From the NCBI GenBank assembly GCA_025059775.1, contig JANXCW010000005.1, positions 1 through 64,000 on the forward strand: DNA of 64,000 nt, given 5' to 3'. This document shows, one piece after another, positions 51,019-61,536 of this stretch. Made by a program: the position numbers and the translations under genes. Below the pieces are notes generated by a model that did not search any database, was not told the DNA's origin, and was given only the letters and a program-made list of their open reading frames with translations. The stretch's first letter is position 1, and each line of letters starts with the position of its first letter. The stretch comes from Armatimonadota bacterium (GTDB taxonomy: Bacteria; Sysuimicrobiota; Sysuimicrobiia; Sysuimicrobiales; Sysuimicrobiaceae).

Positions 51019-51831
51019 GTGGAGCTCCTGCGCTCCCTCTCCATCGGTCAGTACATCCCCCGGGACTCCCCCGTGCACCGGCTCGATCCCCGCACCAAGC
51101 TCCTGGCCACCACCGTCTTCATGGTGGCGCTCTTCCTCGTCCGGGGCTTCTGGGGGTTCGCGGTGTTCGCGGCCTTTCTCGGTGCCACGCTCGCCCTCGC
51201 CCAGATCCCGATCGGGTTCGCGCTCCGGAGCCTGCGCCCGGTCCTCCTCCTGCTCCTCCTCGCCCTCGTGCTCCAGCTGTTCTTCGGAACCCCCGAGGGC
51301 GGAACGGTGTTGGTGCGGCTGGGACCGCTGGTGGCCACCCGCGAGGGCTTGGTCCAGGGACTGTTTGTGACCGCGCGCCTGGTCCTCCTCATCGTGGGTA
51401 CCTCCCTGCTCACCTACACCACCTCCCCGGTCGCCATCGCGGACGGATTGGAGCGCCTGCTGAACCCCTTCCGGCGGGTCGGGGTTCCCGCACACGAACT
51501 CGCCATGATGATGACCATCGCCCTCCGGTTCATCCCCACCCTGGTGGAGGAGACGGAGAAGATCATCAAGGCCCAGACAAGCCGGGGTGCGGACTTCGAA
51601 TCCGGAGGGCCCCTCCGGCGGGCCCGCGCCCTCCTGCCGGTGCTGATTCCGCTTTTCGTGAGTGCCTTCCGACGGGCGGAGGAGCTGGCACTCGCCATGG
51701 AGGCCCGGTGCTACCGGGGTGGGGAAGGCCGCACCCGCATGAAGCAGCTGCGCTACACCTCCCGCGATGCCGTGGCCGCCGCCGCGGTGGCCGCGGTGAG
51801 TACCCTGGGTTTCGTGTTCGGCCGCCTCTAG
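51019..51831 (+). CDS. ecfT: Energy-coupling factor transporter transmembrane protein EcfT
   Basis: The 270-residue membrane scaffold joins the two ATPases to substrate-binding S subunits. It begins QYIPRDSPVHRLDPRTKLLA, the usual start, and has several hydrophobic helices. The two coupling-helix motifs are IIKAQTSRGADFESGGPLRR and ALAMEARCYRGGEGRTRMKQ. GTG 51019 is 2 bases after ecfA2. The genes that often follow (truA, rplM, rpsI) are absent; the repair operon comes next. Confidence 0.93.
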   Translation: MELLRSLSIGQYIPRDSPVHRLDPRTKLLATTVFMVALFLVRGFWGFAVFAAFLGATLALAQIPIGFALRSLRPVLLLLLLALVLQLFFGTPEGGTVLVRLGPLVATREGLVQGLFVTARLVLLIVGTSLLTYTTSPVAIADGLERLLNPFRRVGVPAHELAMMMTIALRFIPTLVEETEKIIKAQTSRGADFESGGPLRRARALLPVLIPLFVSAFRRAEELALAMEARCYRGGEGRTRMKQLRYTSRDAVAAAAVAAVSTLGFVFGRL

Positions 51832-51896: not shown

Positions 51897-51925
51897 TTGC
51901 GATTCGAACACGGGTTCGATATGAT
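51897..51925 (+). promoter_or_regulatory. Promoter of the nurA-herA-sbcDC operon
   Basis: TTGCGA (51897-51902) and TATGAT (51920-51925) are separated by exactly 17 bases. The whole spacer is occupied by a LexA-type palindrome. Transcription should start near 51932, 13 bases before the nurA ATG at 51945. Confidence 0.8.
51905..51918 (+). promoter_or_regulatory. LexA (SOS/DinR) box in the promoter spacer
   Basis: CGAACACGGGTTCG is a perfect match to the Gram-positive LexA core CGAAC-N4-GTTCG, and the symmetry extends by one pair to TCGAAC-ACGG-GTTCGA (51904-51919). Lying between the -35 and -10 hexamers, a bound LexA dimer would block RNA polymerase. This predicts induction of the downstream repair genes after DNA damage. 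Confidence 0.8.
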
Positions 51926-51944
51926 CTCGTCTACGGGGGGCCGG

Positions 51945-52955
51945 ATGTTCGGGGAACTGAGGATTCGCCTAGATCCGTGGGATGTGGACTACGGTCCGGA
52001 ACTTTCCGCGGAGGAGGAGCCGGAGGGGCAGAAATCCGATGTGTTCCCGGACGTAGAGCTGCCGGAGCACGCGTGGCAGCCTGTCTACCCCGCGGAGCCC
52101 TTTCTCCTGGATCGCATCTACTTCGTGGACGGGGTGCGGCGCATTGACGCCCGGGTGGTGGTGGAAGGGGAGCCGATCGCGTACGGAGCTTTCGGGAGCT
52201 TCGCGGCGGGAAGCGTGTGCGTGCAGGACGGCGTCGCCCAGTTCGGCCCCTGCATCCTGGATCGGCTCCTCGTGATAGGGGGAGGCAGGTCCTTGGATCA
52301 TCCGATCCCCGTGATGCCCAGGGCCGCCTACCGTCCCGTGAGCACGGAGGGACGGGATTCGGAAGCACCCCTGCAGAAACTGCAGGAGGAGATGCGGCTG
52401 GCGGAGGAGCGTCTCGCCCGTGAACTCGCGGACGCCGACCGCACCCTGGTGGTGGTGGACGGTCCCCTCACCTTCGCGGATCCCGTGCGGGGGGCTGCGG
52501 TGGGCTTCATCAAGCACATCTCCCGCTTCTACCTCTCCTCCCCGAAAAGCCTGGAGGTCCTGCGTGGGCTTCCCACGGGCGCCCGCACACCCCTGTTTGG
52601 CCTCCACGGCGCCCGCCGGTTTGCCCGCTATTCTTGGTTTCTGCGGCTGATCCCTCCGGCAGCGGGCGATCCCCCGTTCTCCGGCATCGTGCGGCTGGAG
52701 GTCTCGGAGACCGTGGGCCGGGAAGCTGCACGGCGGCTTGCGGACGCCACGGCCTGGGCTCTGCCGCGGTTCGTACGGCCCCGGGGTATGGATCCGCGGG
52801 CACCACAGAACCTGGCCCCCATCGGTGCCCTGGAGGCGCACCTGCGCCGGCGGCTTGGGGATCGCCTCCTGCTCCGGCGGCACATCCAAACCCTCATCGT
52901 CCGGGAGGTGCGTTCCCGTGGAGATTCGGATTCAGCCGGAAGCTCGATCCCCTGA
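51945..52955 (+). CDS. nurA: NurA-domain 5'-3' nuclease
   Basis: The 336-residue protein fits the NurA fold. YFVDGVRRIDARV carries the first metal-binding aspartate (D62), and TLVVVDGPLTFADP the second (D172). VGFIKHISRFYL, ARYSWFLRL and a PQNLAPIGALEAHLRRR C-terminal motif are at the expected places. NurA digests 5' strands at double-strand breaks, together with the HerA pump. ATG 51945 is chosen because an earlier in-frame TTG (51897) lies in the promoter itself. The 3' end overlaps herA by 38 bases. NurA is best known from archaea and Deinococcus-Thermus. Confidence 0.82.
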   Translation: MFGELRIRLDPWDVDYGPELSAEEEPEGQKSDVFPDVELPEHAWQPVYPAEPFLLDRIYFVDGVRRIDARVVVEGEPIAYGAFGSFAAGSVCVQDGVAQFGPCILDRLLVIGGGRSLDHPIPVMPRAAYRPVSTEGRDSEAPLQKLQEEMRLAEERLARELADADRTLVVVDGPLTFADPVRGAAVGFIKHISRFYLSSPKSLEVLRGLPTGARTPLFGLHGARRFARYSWFLRLIPPAAGDPPFSGIVRLEVSETVGREAARRLADATAWALPRFVRPRGMDPRAPQNLAPIGALEAHLRRRLGDRLLLRRHIQTLIVREVRSRGDSDSAGSSIP

Positions 52956-54606
52956 GGTGGGTATCCCGGACGGCGGCGTGGTCCTGGGGACCCTGGATGC
53001 CACCCCGTTAGAGTTCTGGATCGGCGTGCAGGAAGGGGGGGTGGTGCAGCTGGACGACCTGGTGGTGGCGGAGACCCGGCTCCCCGACGGGCAACGGGTT
53101 CGGTTCTATGGGGTGGTGGACCAGGTCCGCAAGCGCTACGAGGGCACTTACTACGACAACGACGCCTTCCGGGTTACGGACGGGATGTTGCCCGCAGACG
53201 TCTCCTATGCGGCCCACGTGCAGGTCACCCGCATCGATCCCGAGGTGTTCATTCCGCCCTCCCCCGGAGATCGGGCTCGGGTGGTGCGGGGGGAGGAGTT
53301 CCAGCGGGCCCTGTACTTCGACACCTTCTCCCGCAGGATTCCCATCGGCCTCACCCGCACGGGGGAACCCGTCTATGCAAACCTGGAGTTCCTGGACGGC
53401 ACTCGGGGGGCTCACGTCTCCATCAGCGGGGTCTCGGGCGTGGCCACGAAGACCAGTTATGCCACCTTCCTCCTCTATGCCCTCTTCCACTCCGGTGCTC
53501 TCGGGATGGACGCCACCAATGCGAAGGCCCTGGTCTTCAACGTCAAAGGCGAGGACCTCCTGTGGTTGGACCACCCCAACGCCCGGATGGACGAGGCGGC
53601 CCGCGCGGAATACGCCCGTCTGGACCTCCCCGTGGGCCCCTTCCGCAGCGTGGCCTTCTACGCTCCTGCCAGACGCCACTCCCACATCCCCATCCCGGAC
53701 GTGGGAAGCCGCAGCACCGGTGTGCGGCCGTATCTCTGGACCCTCCGGGAGTTCTGCCGGGAGGGACTGCTGCGGTTCTGCTTCGCGGAGGCGGAAGATG
53801 CCCGGGCCCAGGTGTCCTTCGTGGTGGCCCGGGTGGAGAATCATTTGCGCCGTCTGGCGGAGCAGGGCGATCCCGACGATCCCGGCCTCTCGGTGGAGGA
53901 GCGACGGCTCCGCACCTTTCGGGACCTCGTGGACTACCTGGATACCCCAGTTCTGGACAGCTGGGTTTCTGTGGCACCCGGAACTCTGGATGCCTTTCGC
54001 CGGCGCCTCCATGCCGCCGCGGACCGCATGGGACACCTCGTGCGGGGAGACCGGGAGGCAATGGGGTGGCGCATCGACTGGCAGGCGCAGCAGGTCACCG
54101 TGGTGGATCTGCACACCCTTCCCGCCCAGGCCCAGATGTTCGTGGTGGGGGTGCTCCTCAAGCGCATGATGGAGGAAAAGGAACGGCAGGGGACGGCGCG
54201 GCCCCTCGTGTTCGTGGTCCTGGATGAGCTCAACAAGTACGCGCCCCGGGAGGGCACCAGCCCCATCCGGGATGTGCTGCTGGACATCGCGGAGCGGGGC
54301 CGGTCGTTGGGGGTTTCCCTATTCGGCTGCCAGCAGACCGCGAGCGAGGTGGAGCGACGTGTCCTCGCGAACGCGGCCCTCAAGGTGGTGGGCCGCCTGG
54401 ATCCCGCGGAGGCGGAGCGGGGCGAGTACGGTTGGCTCACCCGCACCGCCCGGCTGCGGGCGCAGCTGCTACAGCCCGGAACCATGATCGTCTCTCAGCC
54501 CGACATCCCCACCCCGTTGCTGGTGCGCTTCCCCTTCCCCGCCTGGGCCACCCGGCAGAGCGAGGCGGCGCTGCCGGAGGACGAGGATCCCTTCGCGCGC
54601 CTGTAG
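52918..54606 (+). CDS. herA: HerA-type hexameric DNA-translocating ATPase
   Basis: The 562-residue protein starts VEIRIQPEARSPEVGIPDGG (HAS-barrel-like N-domain). The P-loop is unusual: SISGVSGVATKTSYATFLLY with K178, lacking the usual Gly-Lys pair. FNVKGEDLLWLDHPN follows. Walker B is LVFVVLDELNKYAPREGTSP, then AERGRSLGVSLFGCQQTASE, a sensor-like stretch of the FtsK/HerA superfamily, and a PGTMIVSQPDIPTPLLVRFP C-terminus. HerA forms a ring that drives DNA into NurA for end resection. GTG 52918 lies inside nurA, behind GGGAGG. Confidence 0.85.
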   Translation: MEIRIQPEARSPEVGIPDGGVVLGTLDATPLEFWIGVQEGGVVQLDDLVVAETRLPDGQRVRFYGVVDQVRKRYEGTYYDNDAFRVTDGMLPADVSYAAHVQVTRIDPEVFIPPSPGDRARVVRGEEFQRALYFDTFSRRIPIGLTRTGEPVYANLEFLDGTRGAHVSISGVSGVATKTSYATFLLYALFHSGALGMDATNAKALVFNVKGEDLLWLDHPNARMDEAARAEYARLDLPVGPFRSVAFYAPARRHSHIPIPDVGSRSTGVRPYLWTLREFCREGLLRFCFAEAEDARAQVSFVVARVENHLRRLAEQGDPDDPGLSVEERRLRTFRDLVDYLDTPVLDSWVSVAPGTLDAFRRRLHAAADRMGHLVRGDREAMGWRIDWQAQQVTVVDLHTLPAQAQMFVVGVLLKRMMEEKERQGTARPLVFVVLDELNKYAPREGTSPIRDVLLDIAERGRSLGVSLFGCQQTASEVERRVLANAALKVVGRLDPAEAERGEYGWLTRTARLRAQLLQPGTMIVSQPDIPTPLLVRFPFPAWATRQSEAALPEDEDPFARL

Positions 54607-54608
54607 CG

Positions 54609-55781
54609 ATGCGCATCGTCCACACCAGCGACTGGCACGCGGGCCGGCTGTGGCGACAGGTGAACCGGCTCCCGGAGCTCGCCACCGCCCTGGAGGATCT
54701 CGCGGACTTCCTCGAGCGGGAGCAGGTGGATGTCCTCCTCATGTCCGGGGACGTTTTCGATTCTCCCCTTCCACCCGCGGAGGCGGAGAAGGTGGTCTTC
54801 GAGTTCTTCAAGCGCATCGGGATCGCTGGGGTGCAGAGCGTGGTGGTGGCAGGGAACCACGACAGCCCCGTGCGGCTTCAGGCGTGGGGGACCCTCGCGG
54901 AACTCGTCCACGTGCGGGCCGTGGGCCGGCCCCTGCGGGCGGAGGAGGGCGGGGTGTTGGAGCTCGTGACCCGATCCGGGGAGCGGGCGGTGGTGGCCGC
55001 GGTGCCCTTTGCCCCCCCGGGGGCCTTCGTGCGGGCCCTGGATCTCGCGGGGACCGACACCCAGGTCCACCAGCGGTACGCACACCACCTCCAACGCATC
55101 GTGGAACACCTCTGCGGGCGCTTCCGGCCGGACGCGGTGAACCTCCTCGTGGCCCACGCCTTCGTGGAGGGCGCGGTGCTCTCGGGGTCCGAGCGGGAGG
55201 TGCACGTGGGCGAGGCATGGGCTGCCACGCCCCAGACCCTCCCTCCCCAGGCCCACTACGTGGCCCTGGGCCATGTGCACCGCCCCCAGCGGATCCCCGC
55301 CTCCCCTGCGCCTGCGGAGTACGCGGGAAGTGTGCTGCAGCTGGACTTCAACGAGAGGGGGGAGGAGAAGTCCTTCGTCTTCCTCCCGGAGGTGGTTCCG
55401 GGTCGGCCCGTGCGTCCTGAACGCATCCCCTACCGGGGAGGAAAACCTCTCCTGGAGGTGCGGGGCAGCTTGGAGGAACTGGAGCGCCGGGCCTCAGACC
55501 TCCGGGGGAGGGGGTGGATCCGGGTGACCGTGCCCCTTCGCGCTCCGGATCCCGACATCGGGGCCAAGGTGCGCCGGATCCTTCCGGAGGCCGTGGTGGT
55601 GCGGGTGGAGCTCCCGGAGACAGGGCACACGCCCTCAGCTCCGGAGCGCCGCCACCTGAGCCCGCTGGAGCTCTACCGGTGGTTCCATCGCGCCCGGTAC
55701 GGCACGGAACCCTCGGAGGCCCTGATGGCTGCCTTCGAGCGGTTTCGGGAGCGGGCGGAGGAGGCCACGTGCGGCCGCTGA
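54609..55781 (+). CDS. sbcD: DNA double-strand break repair nuclease SbcD/Mre11
   Basis: The 390-residue phosphoesterase has the metal-site motifs in order: IVHTSDWHAGRLW (D8, H10), VLLMSGDVFDSPLPP, VVVAGNHDSPVRLQA, VAHAFVEGAVL and YVALGHVHRPQRI. It forms the nuclease half of the Mre11-Rad50 complex that opens blocked or hairpin ends. It begins 2 bases after herA and overlaps sbcC by 13 bases, so all four proteins should be made together. Confidence 0.93.
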   Translation: MRIVHTSDWHAGRLWRQVNRLPELATALEDLADFLEREQVDVLLMSGDVFDSPLPPAEAEKVVFEFFKRIGIAGVQSVVVAGNHDSPVRLQAWGTLAELVHVRAVGRPLRAEEGGVLELVTRSGERAVVAAVPFAPPGAFVRALDLAGTDTQVHQRYAHHLQRIVEHLCGRFRPDAVNLLVAHAFVEGAVLSGSEREVHVGEAWAATPQTLPPQAHYVALGHVHRPQRIPASPAPAEYAGSVLQLDFNERGEEKSFVFLPEVVPGRPVRPERIPYRGGKPLLEVRGSLEELERRASDLRGRGWIRVTVPLRAPDPDIGAKVRRILPEAVVVRVELPETGHTPSAPERRHLSPLELYRWFHRARYGTEPSEALMAAFERFRERAEEATCGR

Positions 55782-58700
55782 GGCTGCTGCTGGAGGGCTT
55801 TACCTGCTTTAAGGAGGGGCAATCCCTGGACTTCGCCCATCTGGATCTCTTCGCCATCACGGGGCCCACCGGCGCGGGCAAGACCAGCTTGCTGGACGCC
55901 ATGATCTTCGCCCTCTACGGACGGATCCCACGGGTGGGCCGCCGGTATGCGGAACTCATCTCCCTGGGCCGGGACCGGATGTCCGTGGTCCTGGAGTTTC
56001 AGCTGTTAGATCGCCGCTTCCGGGTAGGGCGGACGGGCCGCCGGAGCGGACCTGCCCAAGCCGTCCTGGAGGAGATCCTGGACGGCGGTACCAAAGCGCT
56101 GGCGAGCGGGGTGCGGGAGGTGGATCGGGCCGTTCAGGACCTCCTGGGCCTCCCGTATGAGGCCTTCACCCAGGCCGTGGTGCTGCCCCAGGGGGAGTTC
56201 GCGACGTTCCTCAAAAGTCCCCCGGGAGAGCGCCGGGAGATCCTCCGCGACCTCCTGCGTCTGCAGATCTACGAGCGGATGCGGCAGCTGGCCCAGGAGG
56301 AACGTCAGGCTCTGGAGGCAAGCCGCAGTGGACTGGAGCGCCTGTGCGAGGAGTACGCGGACGCCACCCCGCAGGCCCTGCGGGCCGCGGAGGAGGAGGT
56401 GGAGGGACTCAGGAGGGCACGGGAGGAGCTGGACCAGCGCCTGCGCGAGCTGCGGCAGCGGCTGGAGATCCTGACAGAACTCCGCCGGAAGACCGCGGAA
56501 CTCGAGGCCCTCCAGGAGCGGGAACGGGCCCTGATCACCCAAGAGAAGGACGTGCGGGCCGCTGCCGAGCGCCTGAAGCAGGCCGAGCGGGCGCGGGAGA
56601 TCCTGCCACGGCTCAGAGGCGCACAGTGGGCGGGGGAGCAGGCCCTTCTGGCCGCGAAGCGCGTGGAGACGATCCGGGAGGAACTGGAGCGGGCGCGCCA
56701 GCGGCACAACCTGGCCCAGACGGACCTGGAGCGGGCGGAGGAGGAGGCCCGGCGCATCCCGGCGCTGCGGGAGCGGATCCGTGCCCTCGACGAACTCCGG
56801 GGGATCGTGGAGGCGCTCGAGGCCGCCCGCGGTCGGGTCGAGGCATTCCGCCGACGGGTGGATGGTCTGGAGACCGAGGTGGCGCAGGCGCGATCCGAGC
56901 GGGAGCGCCTGGAGGCGGCGGTTACTGGGCTTCGGGCGGAGGTGGAAGCGGCGGAGCGAGAGTTGGCGGCCATCGGGTACGAGGAGGCGGTGGACCGGCT
57001 GCTGGAGGAGGTGGCCGAGCGAGCCGCGGAGCTGGGTCAGGCCCGCTCGGAGCTGGAGCGCCTGAACCAGGAGGTAGAGACCCTGGAGCACGAAGTCCGG
57101 CGGGCCCGGAAGGCGAGCGCCAGGGCGGAGCAGGCGCTCGCACGTGCCCAGGAGGCGCTCGCCCAAGCCACGGAGCAGGCGGAGGCCGCATCCCAGGCCC
57201 TCCAGCAGGCCCGCTTGCACAACGCGGCCCACGTGCTGCGGACGCAGCTCCGCCCCGGTGATCTGTGCCCCGTGTGCGCTCAGCCCGTGGCCCGCCCTCC
57301 CGCAGGCGTTTCGCCTCCGGAGCTGGCCGGATTGGAGGCACAGTTCCAGAAGGCCCAGGAGGTGCTGAGGCAGGCGCGGCAGGCCGCGGATCAGGCCGCG
57401 GCGGATCACGCGAAAGCCCAGGCCACCGCCCAGCAGACGGAGCTACGAGCCCGGGACGCGCGGGCGCGCCAAACCCTCCTGAGCGAGCAGGTCCGTGCGT
57501 GGACGGAGGAGCTGGAAGGACGGGTGGGAGCGCACGTGGCCGTCGAGCCCGGGCAGGCCATCGAGGAGCGGATCCGCACCACCCTGAGGCACATGCGGAA
57601 CAGGCGGCAGCGGCACGCGCGGGTGGCGGAGCACCTGGAGGCGAAGCGAAGGGAACTGGTGGTCGCTCAGGAGCGAGAGCGCCACATGGAGGAGCGGCTG
57701 AGCCGGCTACAGGAGGAACGTGAGGAGGTGCAGGCTCAGCTCGCCGCGGAGGAGGAGGTGGTGCACGGGTACGAGTGCCGTATCCGGGAGGTGACGGACG
57801 CGGAGGATCCGGTGGCGGAACGGGACGCCCTGGAACAGGAGCTCAGGGGGCTAGAGGATGCGCTCACACGGGCCCGCGAGGCGGCGGCCCGCACCGAGGC
57901 GGAGGTGGCCCAACTGGCCCTGCGGCTCCAGGAGGCGGAGGAGACCGCGCAGCGGGCCCAACGGGAGGCGGCAGAGCAGAGGGTACAGGCAGAGGATGCG
58001 GCCCGGAAGGCGGGCTTTGGGGATCTTCGGGCGGTGGAGGAGGCGGCGCTTGCGGAGGCGGAGGAAGATCGGCTGCGCCAGCTGGTGGAGCGCTACGAGC
58101 TGGAGCGCTGCCACGTGCGCCAGCAGCTCCAGCGGTTGGAACGGGAGTTAAAGGGGGAGAGGGTGACGGAGGAGGCCCTGCAACGGGCCCGCCAGGAGCG
58201 GGACTCCCTGGAGGCCACTTACCGGCAGGCGGTGGAGCGCGTGGCCGCGGCGGAGCAGAAAGTCGCCCAGCTGCGGGAACGGGTGGACCGGGCGGAGCGG
58301 TGGCGCGTGGAGCGGGCCCGGCTGGAGGCCGAGTACGCCCTCATCCGGCAGCTGGCGGATGACCTGCGCAGCGAGCACTTCCAGGAGTTCGTCCTGGAGG
58401 AGACCTTCCGGGAGCTGGTGGCGGGGGCCTCCGTGCGTCTTCTGCGGTTCAGCCATCGCTACACCCTCGAATACGACGAGGACGGGTCGTTCGCGGTGGT
58501 GGACCACGACAACGCGGGAGAGCGGCGCAGCGCGGACACCCTGAGCGGCGGGGAGACCTTCCTGGCCTCCCTGAGCCTCGCCCTGGAGCTCAGCGAGCAG
58601 GTGCAGCGCAGCAGCGGGGCCGTGGCCCTCCACAGCCTCTTCATCGACGAGGGATTCGGAACGCTGGATCCCGAGACCCTGGATCACGTGGCCTGCGCCA

Positions 58701-58834
58701 TCGAGGCCCTCCAGACCGGCGGCCGCATGGTGGGCATCATCACCCACCTCCAGGAGCTCTCCGCGCGACTTCCCACCCGGGTGGTGGTGGAGAAGCGGCC
58801 CGAAGGTTCCCGCATCCGGGTGGTCACGGACTAG
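55769..58834 (+). CDS. sbcC: DNA repair ATPase SbcC/Rad50
   Basis: The 1021-residue ABC-type ATPase begins RPLRLLLEGFTCFKEGQSLD with Walker A GPTGAGKT (residues 32-39). Long coiled coils, rich in Glu, Arg, Ala and Gln, flank the zinc hook C500-PVC503 (GDLCPVCAQPVARPP). The C-terminal half has the signature DTLSGGETFLASLSLALE (near residue 925) and Walker B LHSLFIDEGFGTLDPETL. It partners SbcD to recognise and process DNA ends. GTG 55769 overlaps the end of sbcD. Confidence 0.95.
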   Translation: MRPLRLLLEGFTCFKEGQSLDFAHLDLFAITGPTGAGKTSLLDAMIFALYGRIPRVGRRYAELISLGRDRMSVVLEFQLLDRRFRVGRTGRRSGPAQAVLEEILDGGTKALASGVREVDRAVQDLLGLPYEAFTQAVVLPQGEFATFLKSPPGERREILRDLLRLQIYERMRQLAQEERQALEASRSGLERLCEEYADATPQALRAAEEEVEGLRRAREELDQRLRELRQRLEILTELRRKTAELEALQERERALITQEKDVRAAAERLKQAERAREILPRLRGAQWAGEQALLAAKRVETIREELERARQRHNLAQTDLERAEEEARRIPALRERIRALDELRGIVEALEAARGRVEAFRRRVDGLETEVAQARSERERLEAAVTGLRAEVEAAERELAAIGYEEAVDRLLEEVAERAAELGQARSELERLNQEVETLEHEVRRARKASARAEQALARAQEALAQATEQAEAASQALQQARLHNAAHVLRTQLRPGDLCPVCAQPVARPPAGVSPPELAGLEAQFQKAQEVLRQARQAADQAAADHAKAQATAQQTELRARDARARQTLLSEQVRAWTEELEGRVGAHVAVEPGQAIEERIRTTLRHMRNRRQRHARVAEHLEAKRRELVVAQERERHMEERLSRLQEEREEVQAQLAAEEEVVHGYECRIREVTDAEDPVAERDALEQELRGLEDALTRAREAAARTEAEVAQLALRLQEAEETAQRAQREAAEQRVQAEDAARKAGFGDLRAVEEAALAEAEEDRLRQLVERYELERCHVRQQLQRLERELKGERVTEEALQRARQERDSLEATYRQAVERVAAAEQKVAQLRERVDRAERWRVERARLEAEYALIRQLADDLRSEHFQEFVLEETFRELVAGASVRLLRFSHRYTLEYDEDGSFAVVDHDNAGERRSADTLSGGETFLASLSLALELSEQVQRSSGAVALHSLFIDEGFGTLDPETLDHVACAIEALQTGGRMVGIITHLQELSARLPTRVVVEKRPEGSRIRVVTD

Positions 58835-58892: not shown

Positions 58893-60026
58893 ATGCTGGC
58901 GACCCAGATCCGTCAGAAGGACGGGGTCTTCTACTTCGTGGCGTACCCCGCGGAGGACCTGCTGAGCAGGGTTCGGTTCATGAGCCGGTACTACGGGGAA
59001 GGGGAGCAGATCGCGCCGGAGCCCCCGGGGGAGGAGGACGAGATCGCCCAGTTCATCGCCCGCATCGAGCGCAGCGACCGTGCCTTCCAGCGGGAGCTGT
59101 CGCGCCGCAAGGTCCGGGACATCAAGAACTTCTACGAGACCGCGGGCGAGCAACCGCCCATTCCAGGGACCATCCTCCTGTTCACCCCGGAGCACCTGCG
59201 CTTTGAGCCCCTGGACCGCTACGAGACCGTGGGGGACCTGCAGGAGCCGCTCGGAAAGTATCTCATCATCGACGGCCAGCACCGGCTCGCGGCCCTGGAG
59301 TTCTACCGACGGGAGCGGCCGGAGGAGGCCAAGACCATCTACGTGCCCTGCGTCATCTTCGACGGCCGCAGCGAGGACTTCGCCGCGGAGATGTTCGTCA
59401 TCATCAACGCCACCCCCACCCGCATCAACAAGAGCCACCTGGTGGAGCTGTACGAGCGGGTGCACTGGTGGCAGGCCACCCCGGAGAAGAAGTTCGCGGC
59501 CCGCATCGTCCGTATGCTGTACGAGGAGCCCTCGAGCCCCCTCCGCTACCGGATCAACCGCCCGGGCGGCCGGAGCCGGCAGGAGAAGTGGATCCTGCAG
59601 GCGGAGCTGTTCAACGAGCTGCACCGGTGGGTCCGGCGCATCTGGTCGCAGATCCAGGCGCGCGGCCTCCGGGCGGAGGACTACTACGGGATCCTGCGGG
59701 ACTTCCTGAAGGCGGCGGAGCGGGTGTGGGGAGAGGCGTGGGGCAACCCCAACTACATGGTGACCCGTCCCGTAACCCTCAAGGCCATGATCCGGGCCTG
59801 CGCGGATCTGGCCGCACAGGATGCGGAGCCGGAGGAAGGACGGGTGGATCGGTGGGAGGAGCGCCTGGCCCCCTGGGCCGATCTGCGGCGGATGTTCCGG
59901 GCGGACGGCTTCTACGAGCGCTTCCCCGCCAAGGGGCAGGTGGAGCGCACCGGCCGCATCCACCGGGAGCTGTGTCGGGTGGCGGAAATTGCTCTCACCA
60001 TCCACGACCGCCGGGGACGGGGATAG
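58893..60026 (+). CDS. DGQHR-domain protein (DndB-like)
   Basis: The 377-residue protein carries YLIIDGQHRLAALEFYRRE with D127-GQHR131, the defining motif of the DGQHR family that includes DndB, the regulator of phosphorothioate DNA modification. VFVIINATPTRINKSHLVEL is a second conserved stretch. Before it lies a helical N-terminal part (SDRAFQRELSRRKVRDIKNF). No dndACDE or sspBCD genes are near, so its function is uncertain. ATG 58893 follows GGGAGGAGAGGGG. It lies 58 bases after sbcC on the same strand, with no clear promoter or terminator between, and may be read from the LexA-controlled promoter. Confidence 0.8.
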   Translation: MLATQIRQKDGVFYFVAYPAEDLLSRVRFMSRYYGEGEQIAPEPPGEEDEIAQFIARIERSDRAFQRELSRRKVRDIKNFYETAGEQPPIPGTILLFTPEHLRFEPLDRYETVGDLQEPLGKYLIIDGQHRLAALEFYRRERPEEAKTIYVPCVIFDGRSEDFAAEMFVIINATPTRINKSHLVELYERVHWWQATPEKKFAARIVRMLYEEPSSPLRYRINRPGGRSRQEKWILQAELFNELHRWVRRIWSQIQARGLRAEDYYGILRDFLKAAERVWGEAWGNPNYMVTRPVTLKAMIRACADLAAQDAEPEEGRVDRWEERLAPWADLRRMFRADGFYERFPAKGQVERTGRIHRELCRVAEIALTIHDRRGRG

Positions 60027-60102: not shown

Positions 60103-61536
60103 ATGGCAGAACCACGGAAACCGCGGAACCTGCAGGAACTCATCGACTCGGCGCCGAACCTCGTGGACTACCTCTTCCGCAACCCCAAGGGGGCTCTCTT
60201 CCGGTTCATCTCCTACGCGATGCCGTCCCCCTATGTTTCTCCGGAGTTCACGAACTGGCGGGACGAACAACGGTCCTGGTGGGAGTCCGTGGGGCTCTCG
60301 GACCAATCCTTCCACATGACGAACCTCTGGGTGCGGGGCCCGGACGCCTTCCGGTTTCTCGAGCATCTGGCGGTGAACAGCTTCCAAGGATATGCGCCCG
60401 GGCGGGCCAAGCAGTTCATCGCGTGCTCTCCGGATGGGTACTTCGTGGGCGATGCCGTGCTGTACTACCTGGCACCGGAGACCTTCGTACTGGTGGGGGT
60501 GGACACCACCATGAACTGGGTCCAGTATCACGCGGAGGTAGGGGGATATGAGGTACGGATCGAACGGGATCCGCTGTTCTCGGATAACCCCACGGGGCGC
60601 CGCACGCTGTACCGCTTCGAGCTGGAGGGGCCCAAGGCCACGCCGCTGATGGAGAAGCTGGTGGGCGGACCGCTGCCAGAGATCCGGTTCTTCCACTTCA
60701 CGGACCTCTCCATTGCGGGATGTCGGGTGTGGGTGCTGCGGCACAGCATGACAGGCTCCCCGGGGTTTGAACTCAGTGGCCCGTGGGAGGACCGGGAGCG
60801 GGTGCTGCAGGCCATCCTCGAGGCGGGAAAGGAATTCGGGCTCCGGCGGGTGGGATCCCTGGCGTATTTCACCAACGCCCTGGAATCCGGATGGATCGCG
60901 GGACCCCTTCCGGCCATCTACACGGGGGATGCGCTGCGTCCGTACCGGGAGTGGCTTCCGGTGACCGCTCCGGAGGCCACGGGGGCCATCGGCGGGAGTT
61001 TCTACTCGCCCAACATCGAGGACTATTACCTCACGCCGTACGATCTCGGCTACGGGCACATTGTAAAGTTCGACCACGACTTCGTCGGTCGCAAGAGCCT
61101 GGAGCGCCTGGCGGAGCGTCCGCACCTACAGAAGGTGACCCTGGTGTGGGAGGCGGAGGACGTCCTGGAGCTGGTGCGGCGGAGTCTGTTGTTGGAGGAG
61201 GGAACACCGGCGAAGCACTTGGATCTGCCGGTGGGCATGTATGCCCGGTGGAAGTACGACCGGGTGGAGAACGGTCGAGGGGAACGCATCGGGATCTCGC
61301 AGTGGACGGGGTACGTAGCGAACGAGCGGGCAGTGCTCTCGCTGGCCATGGTGGACCCGGCCTATGCGGAGCCGGGCACGGAGGTGGTGGTGGTGTGGGG
61401 GGAGGATGGAGGGGGTGCCCGGAGCGGGCCATGGATCGAACGGCACGAGCCCATGCCTGTACGGGCCACGGTGGCCCCGGTGCCCATCAGCCGGGTGGCC
61501 CGGGAGTACTGGGCGGTGGTGAAAGCAAGGCGCTGA
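60103..61536 (+). CDS. LigM/DesA-like tetrahydrofolate-dependent O-demethylase (GcvT family)
   Basis: The 477-residue protein follows LigM along its length as I recall that sequence: VSPEFTNWRDEQRSWWESVG, MTNLWVRGPDAFRFLEHLAV, VNSFQGYAPGRAKQFIACSP, LESGWIAGPLPAIYTGD, PYREWLPVTAPEATGAIGGS and NIEDYYLTPYDLGYGHIVKF. LigM and DesA move a methyl group from vanillate, 3-O-methylgallate or syringate to tetrahydrofolate. The substrate here is unknown. It is a cytosolic enzyme of normal LigM length with its own candidate promoter and ribosome-binding site. It may help the cell use methoxylated aromatics and feed one-carbon metabolism. Confidence 0.8.
   Translation: MAEPRKPRNLQELIDSAPNLVDYLFRNPKGALFRFISYAMPSPYVSPEFTNWRDEQRSWWESVGLSDQSFHMTNLWVRGPDAFRFLEHLAVNSFQGYAPGRAKQFIACSPDGYFVGDAVLYYLAPETFVLVGVDTTMNWVQYHAEVGGYEVRIERDPLFSDNPTGRRTLYRFELEGPKATPLMEKLVGGPLPEIRFFHFTDLSIAGCRVWVLRHSMTGSPGFELSGPWEDRERVLQAILEAGKEFGLRRVGSLAYFTNALESGWIAGPLPAIYTGDALRPYREWLPVTAPEATGAIGGSFYSPNIEDYYLTPYDLGYGHIVKFDHDFVGRKSLERLAERPHLQKVTLVWEAEDVLELVRRSLLLEEGTPAKHLDLPVGMYARWKYDRVENGRGERIGISQWTGYVANERAVLSLAMVDPAYAEPGTEVVVVWGEDGGGARSGPWIERHEPMPVRATVAPVPISRVAREYWAVVKARR

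What the first reader, a model, noticed from the sequence alone, without database searches (positions are those of the whole stretch)
51897..51945. LexA box embedded between -35 and -10 of a DNA-end-resection operon
Seen: TTGCGA-N17-TATGAT with the perfect palindrome CGAAC-ACGG-GTTCG filling the spacer. Known: CGAAC-N4-GTTCG is the LexA/DinR operator core in Gram-positive and related bacteria. Inference: NurA, HerA, SbcD and SbcC are SOS-regulated here. HerA-NurA is usually discussed as an archaeal-type system, so direct LexA control would tie an archaeal-style resection machine to the bacterial SOS response.
Basis: partly seen in the sequence, partly recalled or inferred. Interest (0 to 1): 0.85.

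Follow-up and report, generated by a model that had tools for sequence, protein, structure and literature searches.

The report
DNA-break repair operon under LexA switch
In one bacterial genus, an operon for trimming broken DNA ends (NurA, HerA, SbcD, SbcC) sits behind a promoter that carries the binding site of the SOS damage repressor LexA; sequence comparison supports this strongly, but nothing has been measured.

Summary
TTGCGA-N17-TATGAT with CGAAC-ACGG-GTTCG in the spacer lies at 51897-51925, 19 bp before the nurA ATG (51945). It is the only perfect copy in the window (0.06 expected). The genome encodes two LexA proteins. recA, one lexA and other repair genes carry the same kind of box, set into the promoter in the same way. 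Across the order (43 genomes), a promoter-embedded perfect box occurs 44 times and the reversed control pattern never; the genes identified behind it include dnaB, an SPL-like radical SAM gene, lexA2 and RecA-like genes. The sister species keeps the nurA promoter unchanged over 27 consecutive bases. So LexA-type control of nurA-herA-sbcD-sbcC is well supported within this genus. Limits: (1) it is genus-specific: a relative in the same order keeps the operon without the box, and 76 more distant operon starts have no convincing box. (2) The box has an atypical centre (ACGG) and matches the organism's own recA/lexA operator only moderately. (3) With two LexA paralogues, it is unresolved which one binds; LexA2 is slightly favoured. 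(4) No binding or induction data exist. LexA control of sbcDC is already known in Staphylococcus; I found no report for NurA-HerA.

The parts
51897..51902 (+). -35 element TTGCGA
   Evidence: identical in sister species
51905..51918 (+). LexA-type operator CGAACACGGGTTCG filling the promoter spacer
   Evidence: identical in G001; same layout at recA order-wide
51920..51925 (+). -10 element TATGAT (CATAAT in sister species)
51945..52955 (+). nurA, Deinococcus-type NurA nuclease, ATG start
   Evidence: Pfam NurA above cut-off; PDB 7f6d NurA E 9e-28
52918..54606 (+). herA, hexameric ATPase/translocase; start codon (GTG 52918) inferred
   Evidence: PDB 7f6d HerA E 8e-157, nearly full length
54609..55781 (+). 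sbcD nuclease subunit (Mre11 homologue)
   Evidence: TIGR00619 above cut-off
55769..58834 (+). sbcC ATPase subunit (Rad50 homologue); start codon inferred
   Evidence: TIGR00618 and sbcc_Bac matches, below the curated cut-offs; Pfam AAA_23 and SbcC_Walker_B
58893..60026 (+). DGQHR-domain protein (DpdB/DndB-like), 58 bp after sbcC, possibly the last gene of the operon; conserved in G001
   Evidence: TIGR03187 above cut-off; 92.5% identical in G001

Best explanation
The site is a functional SOS operator. A LexA-family repressor dimer binds CGAACACGGGTTCG between the -35 and -10 of the nurA promoter and blocks RNA polymerase. After DNA damage, RecA filaments on single-stranded DNA trigger LexA self-cleavage, and nurA-herA-sbcD-sbcC (perhaps with the DGQHR gene) is derepressed. 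This raises the supply of the nucleases and translocase that open and resect broken ends, which in turn makes more substrate for RecA. Shown by sequence: the site, its placement, its conservation in the sister species, two LexA proteins that match solved LexA repressors, and a matching regulon. Inferred: binding, repression, induction, co-transcription. The repressor is LexA1, LexA2 or both; LexA2 is slightly favoured because perfect CG(A/T)AC..GTTCG boxes go with LexA2-bearing genomes, while CRAAC..GTTTG boxes mark recA and lexA1.
For: Only one exact match in 64 kb, 0.06 expected; 6 in the genome vs 2 for the reversed control. The recA promoter has a CRAACN4GTTTG box in the spacer in 28 of the 30 genomes examined, usually 2 nt after TTGACA as at nurA. 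Promoter-embedded CGAACN4GTTCG: 44 sites in 29 of 43 genomes, zero for the reversed pattern; genes identified behind it include dnaB, SPL-like radical SAM, lexA2 and RecA-like genes. dnaB has such a box in nearly all relatives examined. In the sister species, 27 consecutive bases through -35 and operator are identical, while the upstream intergenic part is about 66% identical. The same A-M-R-G centre occurs at SPL and dnaB in this genus and at ruvC in G036 (CGAACAAAGGTTCG). Both LexA proteins align along nearly their full length with solved LexA repressors. LexA2 link: symmetric dnaB boxes in 15 of 20 LexA2-bearing and 0 of 7 LexA2-less genomes, Fisher p 0.0009, relatedness not corrected.
Against: A matrix trained on recA and lexA1 boxes scores nurA 12.2 bits (symmetric form) against 26.4 for recA of the same genome; in the directional form it ranks only fifth in the window. 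The fourth centre base is G, where recA and lexA1 boxes of the order have T or C. Conservation rests on only two genomes of one genus. The box is missing from the homologous operon in G036. No expression or binding data.
Confidence: 0.82

Rival explanations
1. The palindrome is the operator of a different dimeric repressor (for example GntR-type) that happens to share CGAAC..GTTCG arms, so the operon is regulated but not by SOS.
For: nurA, SPL and dnaB boxes share an atypical AMRG centre absent from recA and lexA1 boxes. In G001 an exact site lies about 60 bp ahead of a GntR-family regulator gene, and both species have exact sites near TRAP or substrate-binding transporter genes.
Against: SPL and dnaB carry ordinary LexA-type boxes in relatives (CGAACATATGTTCG, CGTACATTTGTTCG), so the atypical-centre boxes sit where LexA boxes sit elsewhere. 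ruvC in G036 also has the AAAG centre.
Confidence: 0.1
2. The palindrome is a chance feature of the promoter spacer with no bound regulator.
For: Matches with one mismatch are near chance in the window (3 seen, 1.8 expected); a few exact genome copies lie inside coding sequence.
Against: An exact copy in the promoter spacer of a repair operon, unchanged in a sister species whose flanking DNA has diverged; 44 to 0 order-wide contrast for the promoter-embedded pattern.
Confidence: 0.06
3. The inverted repeat acts in RNA or DNA form: a terminator of the upstream ecfT operon, a tRNA-like element or a leader hairpin.
For: The five-base arms could pair across a four-base loop.
Against: No terminator, no tRNA, no Rfam match. 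It lies upstream of the predicted transcription start, so it would not be in the nurA leader.
Confidence: 0.02

Closest known systems
LexA-regulated sbcDC operon of Staphylococcus aureus (SOS box CGAACAAATGTTCT; review PMC11442139)
   Same: SbcD and SbcC under a LexA box of the Gram-positive type.
   Different: No NurA-HerA there (same review); here nurA and herA are the first genes of the operon.
NurA-HerA of Deinococcus radiodurans (PDB 7f6d; PMC9960219)
   Same: Same NurA and HerA families, including the HerA segment SGVATKTSY around the ATP-binding loop.
   Different: In D. radiodurans the LexA proteins do not control recA and other repair genes (PMC8072749), and damage control runs through PprI-DdrO (PMC10904395); here the promoter carries a LexA-type box.
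nurA-hepA-sbcD-sbcC cluster of Oceanithermus profundus (PMC5448004)
   Same: Same four genes in the same order.
   Different: Regulation not described in the passages read; no SOS or LexA mention in that paper.
Archaeal herA-nurA-mre11-rad50 operon (UV-induced according to PMC5448004)
   Same: Homologous functions, co-transcribed and damage-linked.
   Different: Archaeal HerA models match this HerA only weakly, and no LexA is involved (own knowledge).
Genomes with two LexA paralogues, e.g. Leptospira interrogans (PMC3789691); operator divergence after duplication (PMC8565304)
   Same: Two LexA proteins with diverged operators.
   Different: Here both operators are variants of one CGAAC..GTTCG scheme, and such boxes are found at dnaB.

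Membership tests
LexA (SOS) regulon | lexA and recA present in the genome | tested here: met
   two lexA over cut-off; recA over cut-off
LexA (SOS) regulon | The same kind of box at lexA and recA of the same genome | tested here: met
   recA CAAACAAATGTTTG, lexA2 CGAATATATGTTCG, lexA1 GGAACAGATGTTTG; same scheme, one or two arm bases differ from the nurA box
LexA (SOS) regulon | Box overlaps the promoter | tested here: met
   51905-51918 inside the -35/-10 spacer
LexA (SOS) regulon | Box conserved in relatives that keep the gene | tested here: inconclusive
   Identical in the sister species; absent in G036 of the same order and in distant operons
LexA (SOS) regulon | Quantitative match to the organism's own operator matrix | tested here: inconclusive
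   12.2 bits vs 26.4 for recA; best in the window only in the symmetric models
LexA (SOS) regulon | LexA binding and induction by DNA damage | not testable with these tools
   needs EMSA and expression data
NurA-HerA end-resection pair (Deinococcus type) | Adjacent NurA nuclease and HerA ATPase matching the solved complex | tested here: met
   7f6d chains, E 9e-28 and 8e-157
SbcCD | SbcD and SbcC family matches | tested here: met
   TIGR00619 over cut-off; TIGR00618 288.8 bits, below its 478.5 cut-off but full length, E 9e-86

The most novel reading that the evidence does not exclude
The order runs two partly separate LexA circuits. LexA1 (CRAAC..GTTTG boxes) controls recA and lexA1. LexA2 (CGTAC or CGAAC..GTTCG boxes) controls its own gene, the replicative helicase dnaB, an SPL-like repair gene and RecA-like genes. 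In one genus, a horizontally acquired NurA-HerA-SbcDC resection operon was wired into the LexA2 circuit.
Probability: 0.35. Interest if true: 0.65.

Novelty: new variant of a known kind. Interest (0 to 1): 0.5.

Why it matters
If LexA controls this operon, a bacterial NurA-HerA resection machine is switched on by the very signal (RecA on single-stranded DNA) that its own activity generates, a potential positive feedback not described for NurA-HerA in the papers searched. It would also show how a sporadically distributed repair operon gets connected to the host's damage response, and that the connection is recent and lineage-specific.

Tried and rejected
tRNA, Rfam and terminator readings of the palindrome: nothing found. 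TTG 51897 as nurA start: rejected by the one-base indel between species. LexA boxes ahead of homologous operons in 80 named loci (mostly Acidimicrobiia, plus Acidobacteria, Pseudanabaena and others): 76 had enough upstream sequence; two relaxed-motif hits (L084, L086) look like chance. The exact site in L036 lies between herA and a later gene and was not pursued. The dnaB search was given a query one base out of frame; the loci it returned still contained dnaB, recognised by the DnaB N-terminal motif. A single PDDEXK_1 search found only short frames (263 and 215 aa), no AddB- or RecB-sized protein; this hints at, but does not prove, absence of AddAB/RecBCD.

Full report
Observation. It is the only exact CGAACN4GTTCG in 64 kb, with 0.06 expected from dinucleotide shuffles, and the promoter is the only sigma-70-like hit in the surrounding 400 bp. 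At one mismatch the motif is near chance, so the exactness and the position carry the weight.

The operon. ecfT ends at 51831. nurA starts at ATG 51945: a run of six G just before it is five G in the sister species, so the region upstream cannot be coding in both. NurA matches the D. radiodurans NurA of PDB 7f6d at E 9e-28, HerA matches HerA of the same entry over nearly its full length at E 8e-157, and SbcD and SbcC are clear. A DGQHR (DpdB/DndB-like) gene follows 58 bp later and is also present in the sister species.

SOS machinery in this genome. Two LexA genes exceed the family cut-off, and there is one true recA. Both LexA proteins align along nearly their full length with solved LexA repressors. 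The recA promoter is TTGACA-TGCAAACAAATGTTTGC-TATAGC and the lexA2 promoter TTGACA-TGCGAATATATGTTCGC-CATACT, both with the box in the spacer as at nurA. radA, an SPL-like radical SAM gene and dnaB carry boxes too; lexA1 has GGAACAGATGTTTG and CGAATTCCTGTTTG.

Order-wide test. In 28 of 30 genomes examined the recA promoter has a CRAACN4GTTTG box, mostly 2 nt after TTGACA. lexA1 promoters have CGAACANNTGTTTG; lexA2 promoters mostly have two copies of CGTACN4GTTCG. A search for CGAACN4GTTCG embedded between TTG and a -10-like element found 44 sites in 29 of 43 genomes and none for the reversed pattern. Genes identified behind these sites include dnaB, SPL-like radical SAM, lexA2 and RecA-like genes. 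dnaB carries a LexA-type box in most relatives. The nurA site is therefore one member of a recognisable promoter class.

Conservation. This NurA was found in only 3 of the 43 genomes of the order that were searched. In the sister species (same genus, NurA 87% identical) the promoter is TTGCGATTCGAACACGGGTTCGGCATAAT: 27 consecutive bases through the operator are identical, while the upstream intergenic part is about 66% identical. In the third genome, G036 of another family, the best site in about 700 bp upstream has 3 mismatches. In 76 distant operons there is no convincing box. The SbcD of this type is likewise restricted to these three genomes within the order, which fits horizontal acquisition (inference). 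The link to SOS is therefore genus-level on present data.

Which LexA. The nurA box scores 12.2 bits with a symmetric recA+lexA1 matrix against 26.4 for recA, and 11.2 with the symmetric LexA2 matrix; the directional LexA1 model ranks it only fifth in the window. Its centre ACGG resembles those of SPL (AAAG) and dnaB (ACAG) in the same genus and of ruvC in G036 (AAAG). At dnaB, symmetric boxes occur in 15 of 20 LexA2-bearing genomes and 0 of 7 LexA2-less ones (Fisher p 0.0009; relatedness not corrected, groups assigned by hand). This mildly favours LexA2, but both could bind.

Literature. LexA control of sbcDC is established in S. aureus (PMC11442139). The four-gene order nurA-herA-sbcD-sbcC exists in Oceanithermus (PMC5448004). 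A full-text search for HerA, NurA and LexA together returned ten papers; I read passages in two of them, and none of the titles and abstracts listed reports LexA control of NurA-HerA. Only open-licence PMC papers are held, so this is not proof of absence.

Verdict. LexA-type control of the operon is the best explanation (0.82). It is a new wiring of known parts rather than a new kind of system, and it remains a sequence-based prediction.

Noticed in passing
L008/L214 (G000:C17:11839-11852) and relatives L277-L306: A LexA-type box in the promoter spacer of the replicative helicase gene dnaB in nearly all genomes of the order examined.
   Followed up: partly
L288, L290, L293-L296, about 41-46 nt before the DnaB motif: A second repeat C(G/A)AACGGAGGTTCG close to the dnaB start, with a Shine-Dalgarno-like GGAGG inside the palindrome.
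   Followed up: no
L277 vs L278 (dnaB promoter, G000 vs G001): The box centre is ACAG in one species and CTGT, its reverse complement, in the other, as if the palindrome centre had been inverted.
   Followed up: no
L008 (G000:C17), dnaB: dnaB appears to contain an intein in the Walker A region (after ...SMGK); judged by eye from the translation.
   Followed up: no
L002 (G000:C10:96368 onward): lexA2 lies near a gene that looks like cas6; judged by eye from the translation.
   Followed up: no
window 58893-60026: DGQHR/DpdB-like gene directly after sbcC; no other Dnd or Dpd genes were looked for.
   Followed up: no
window 60103-61536: Syringate or vanillate O-demethylase-like gene downstream; matches are below the curated cut-offs.
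   Followed up: no
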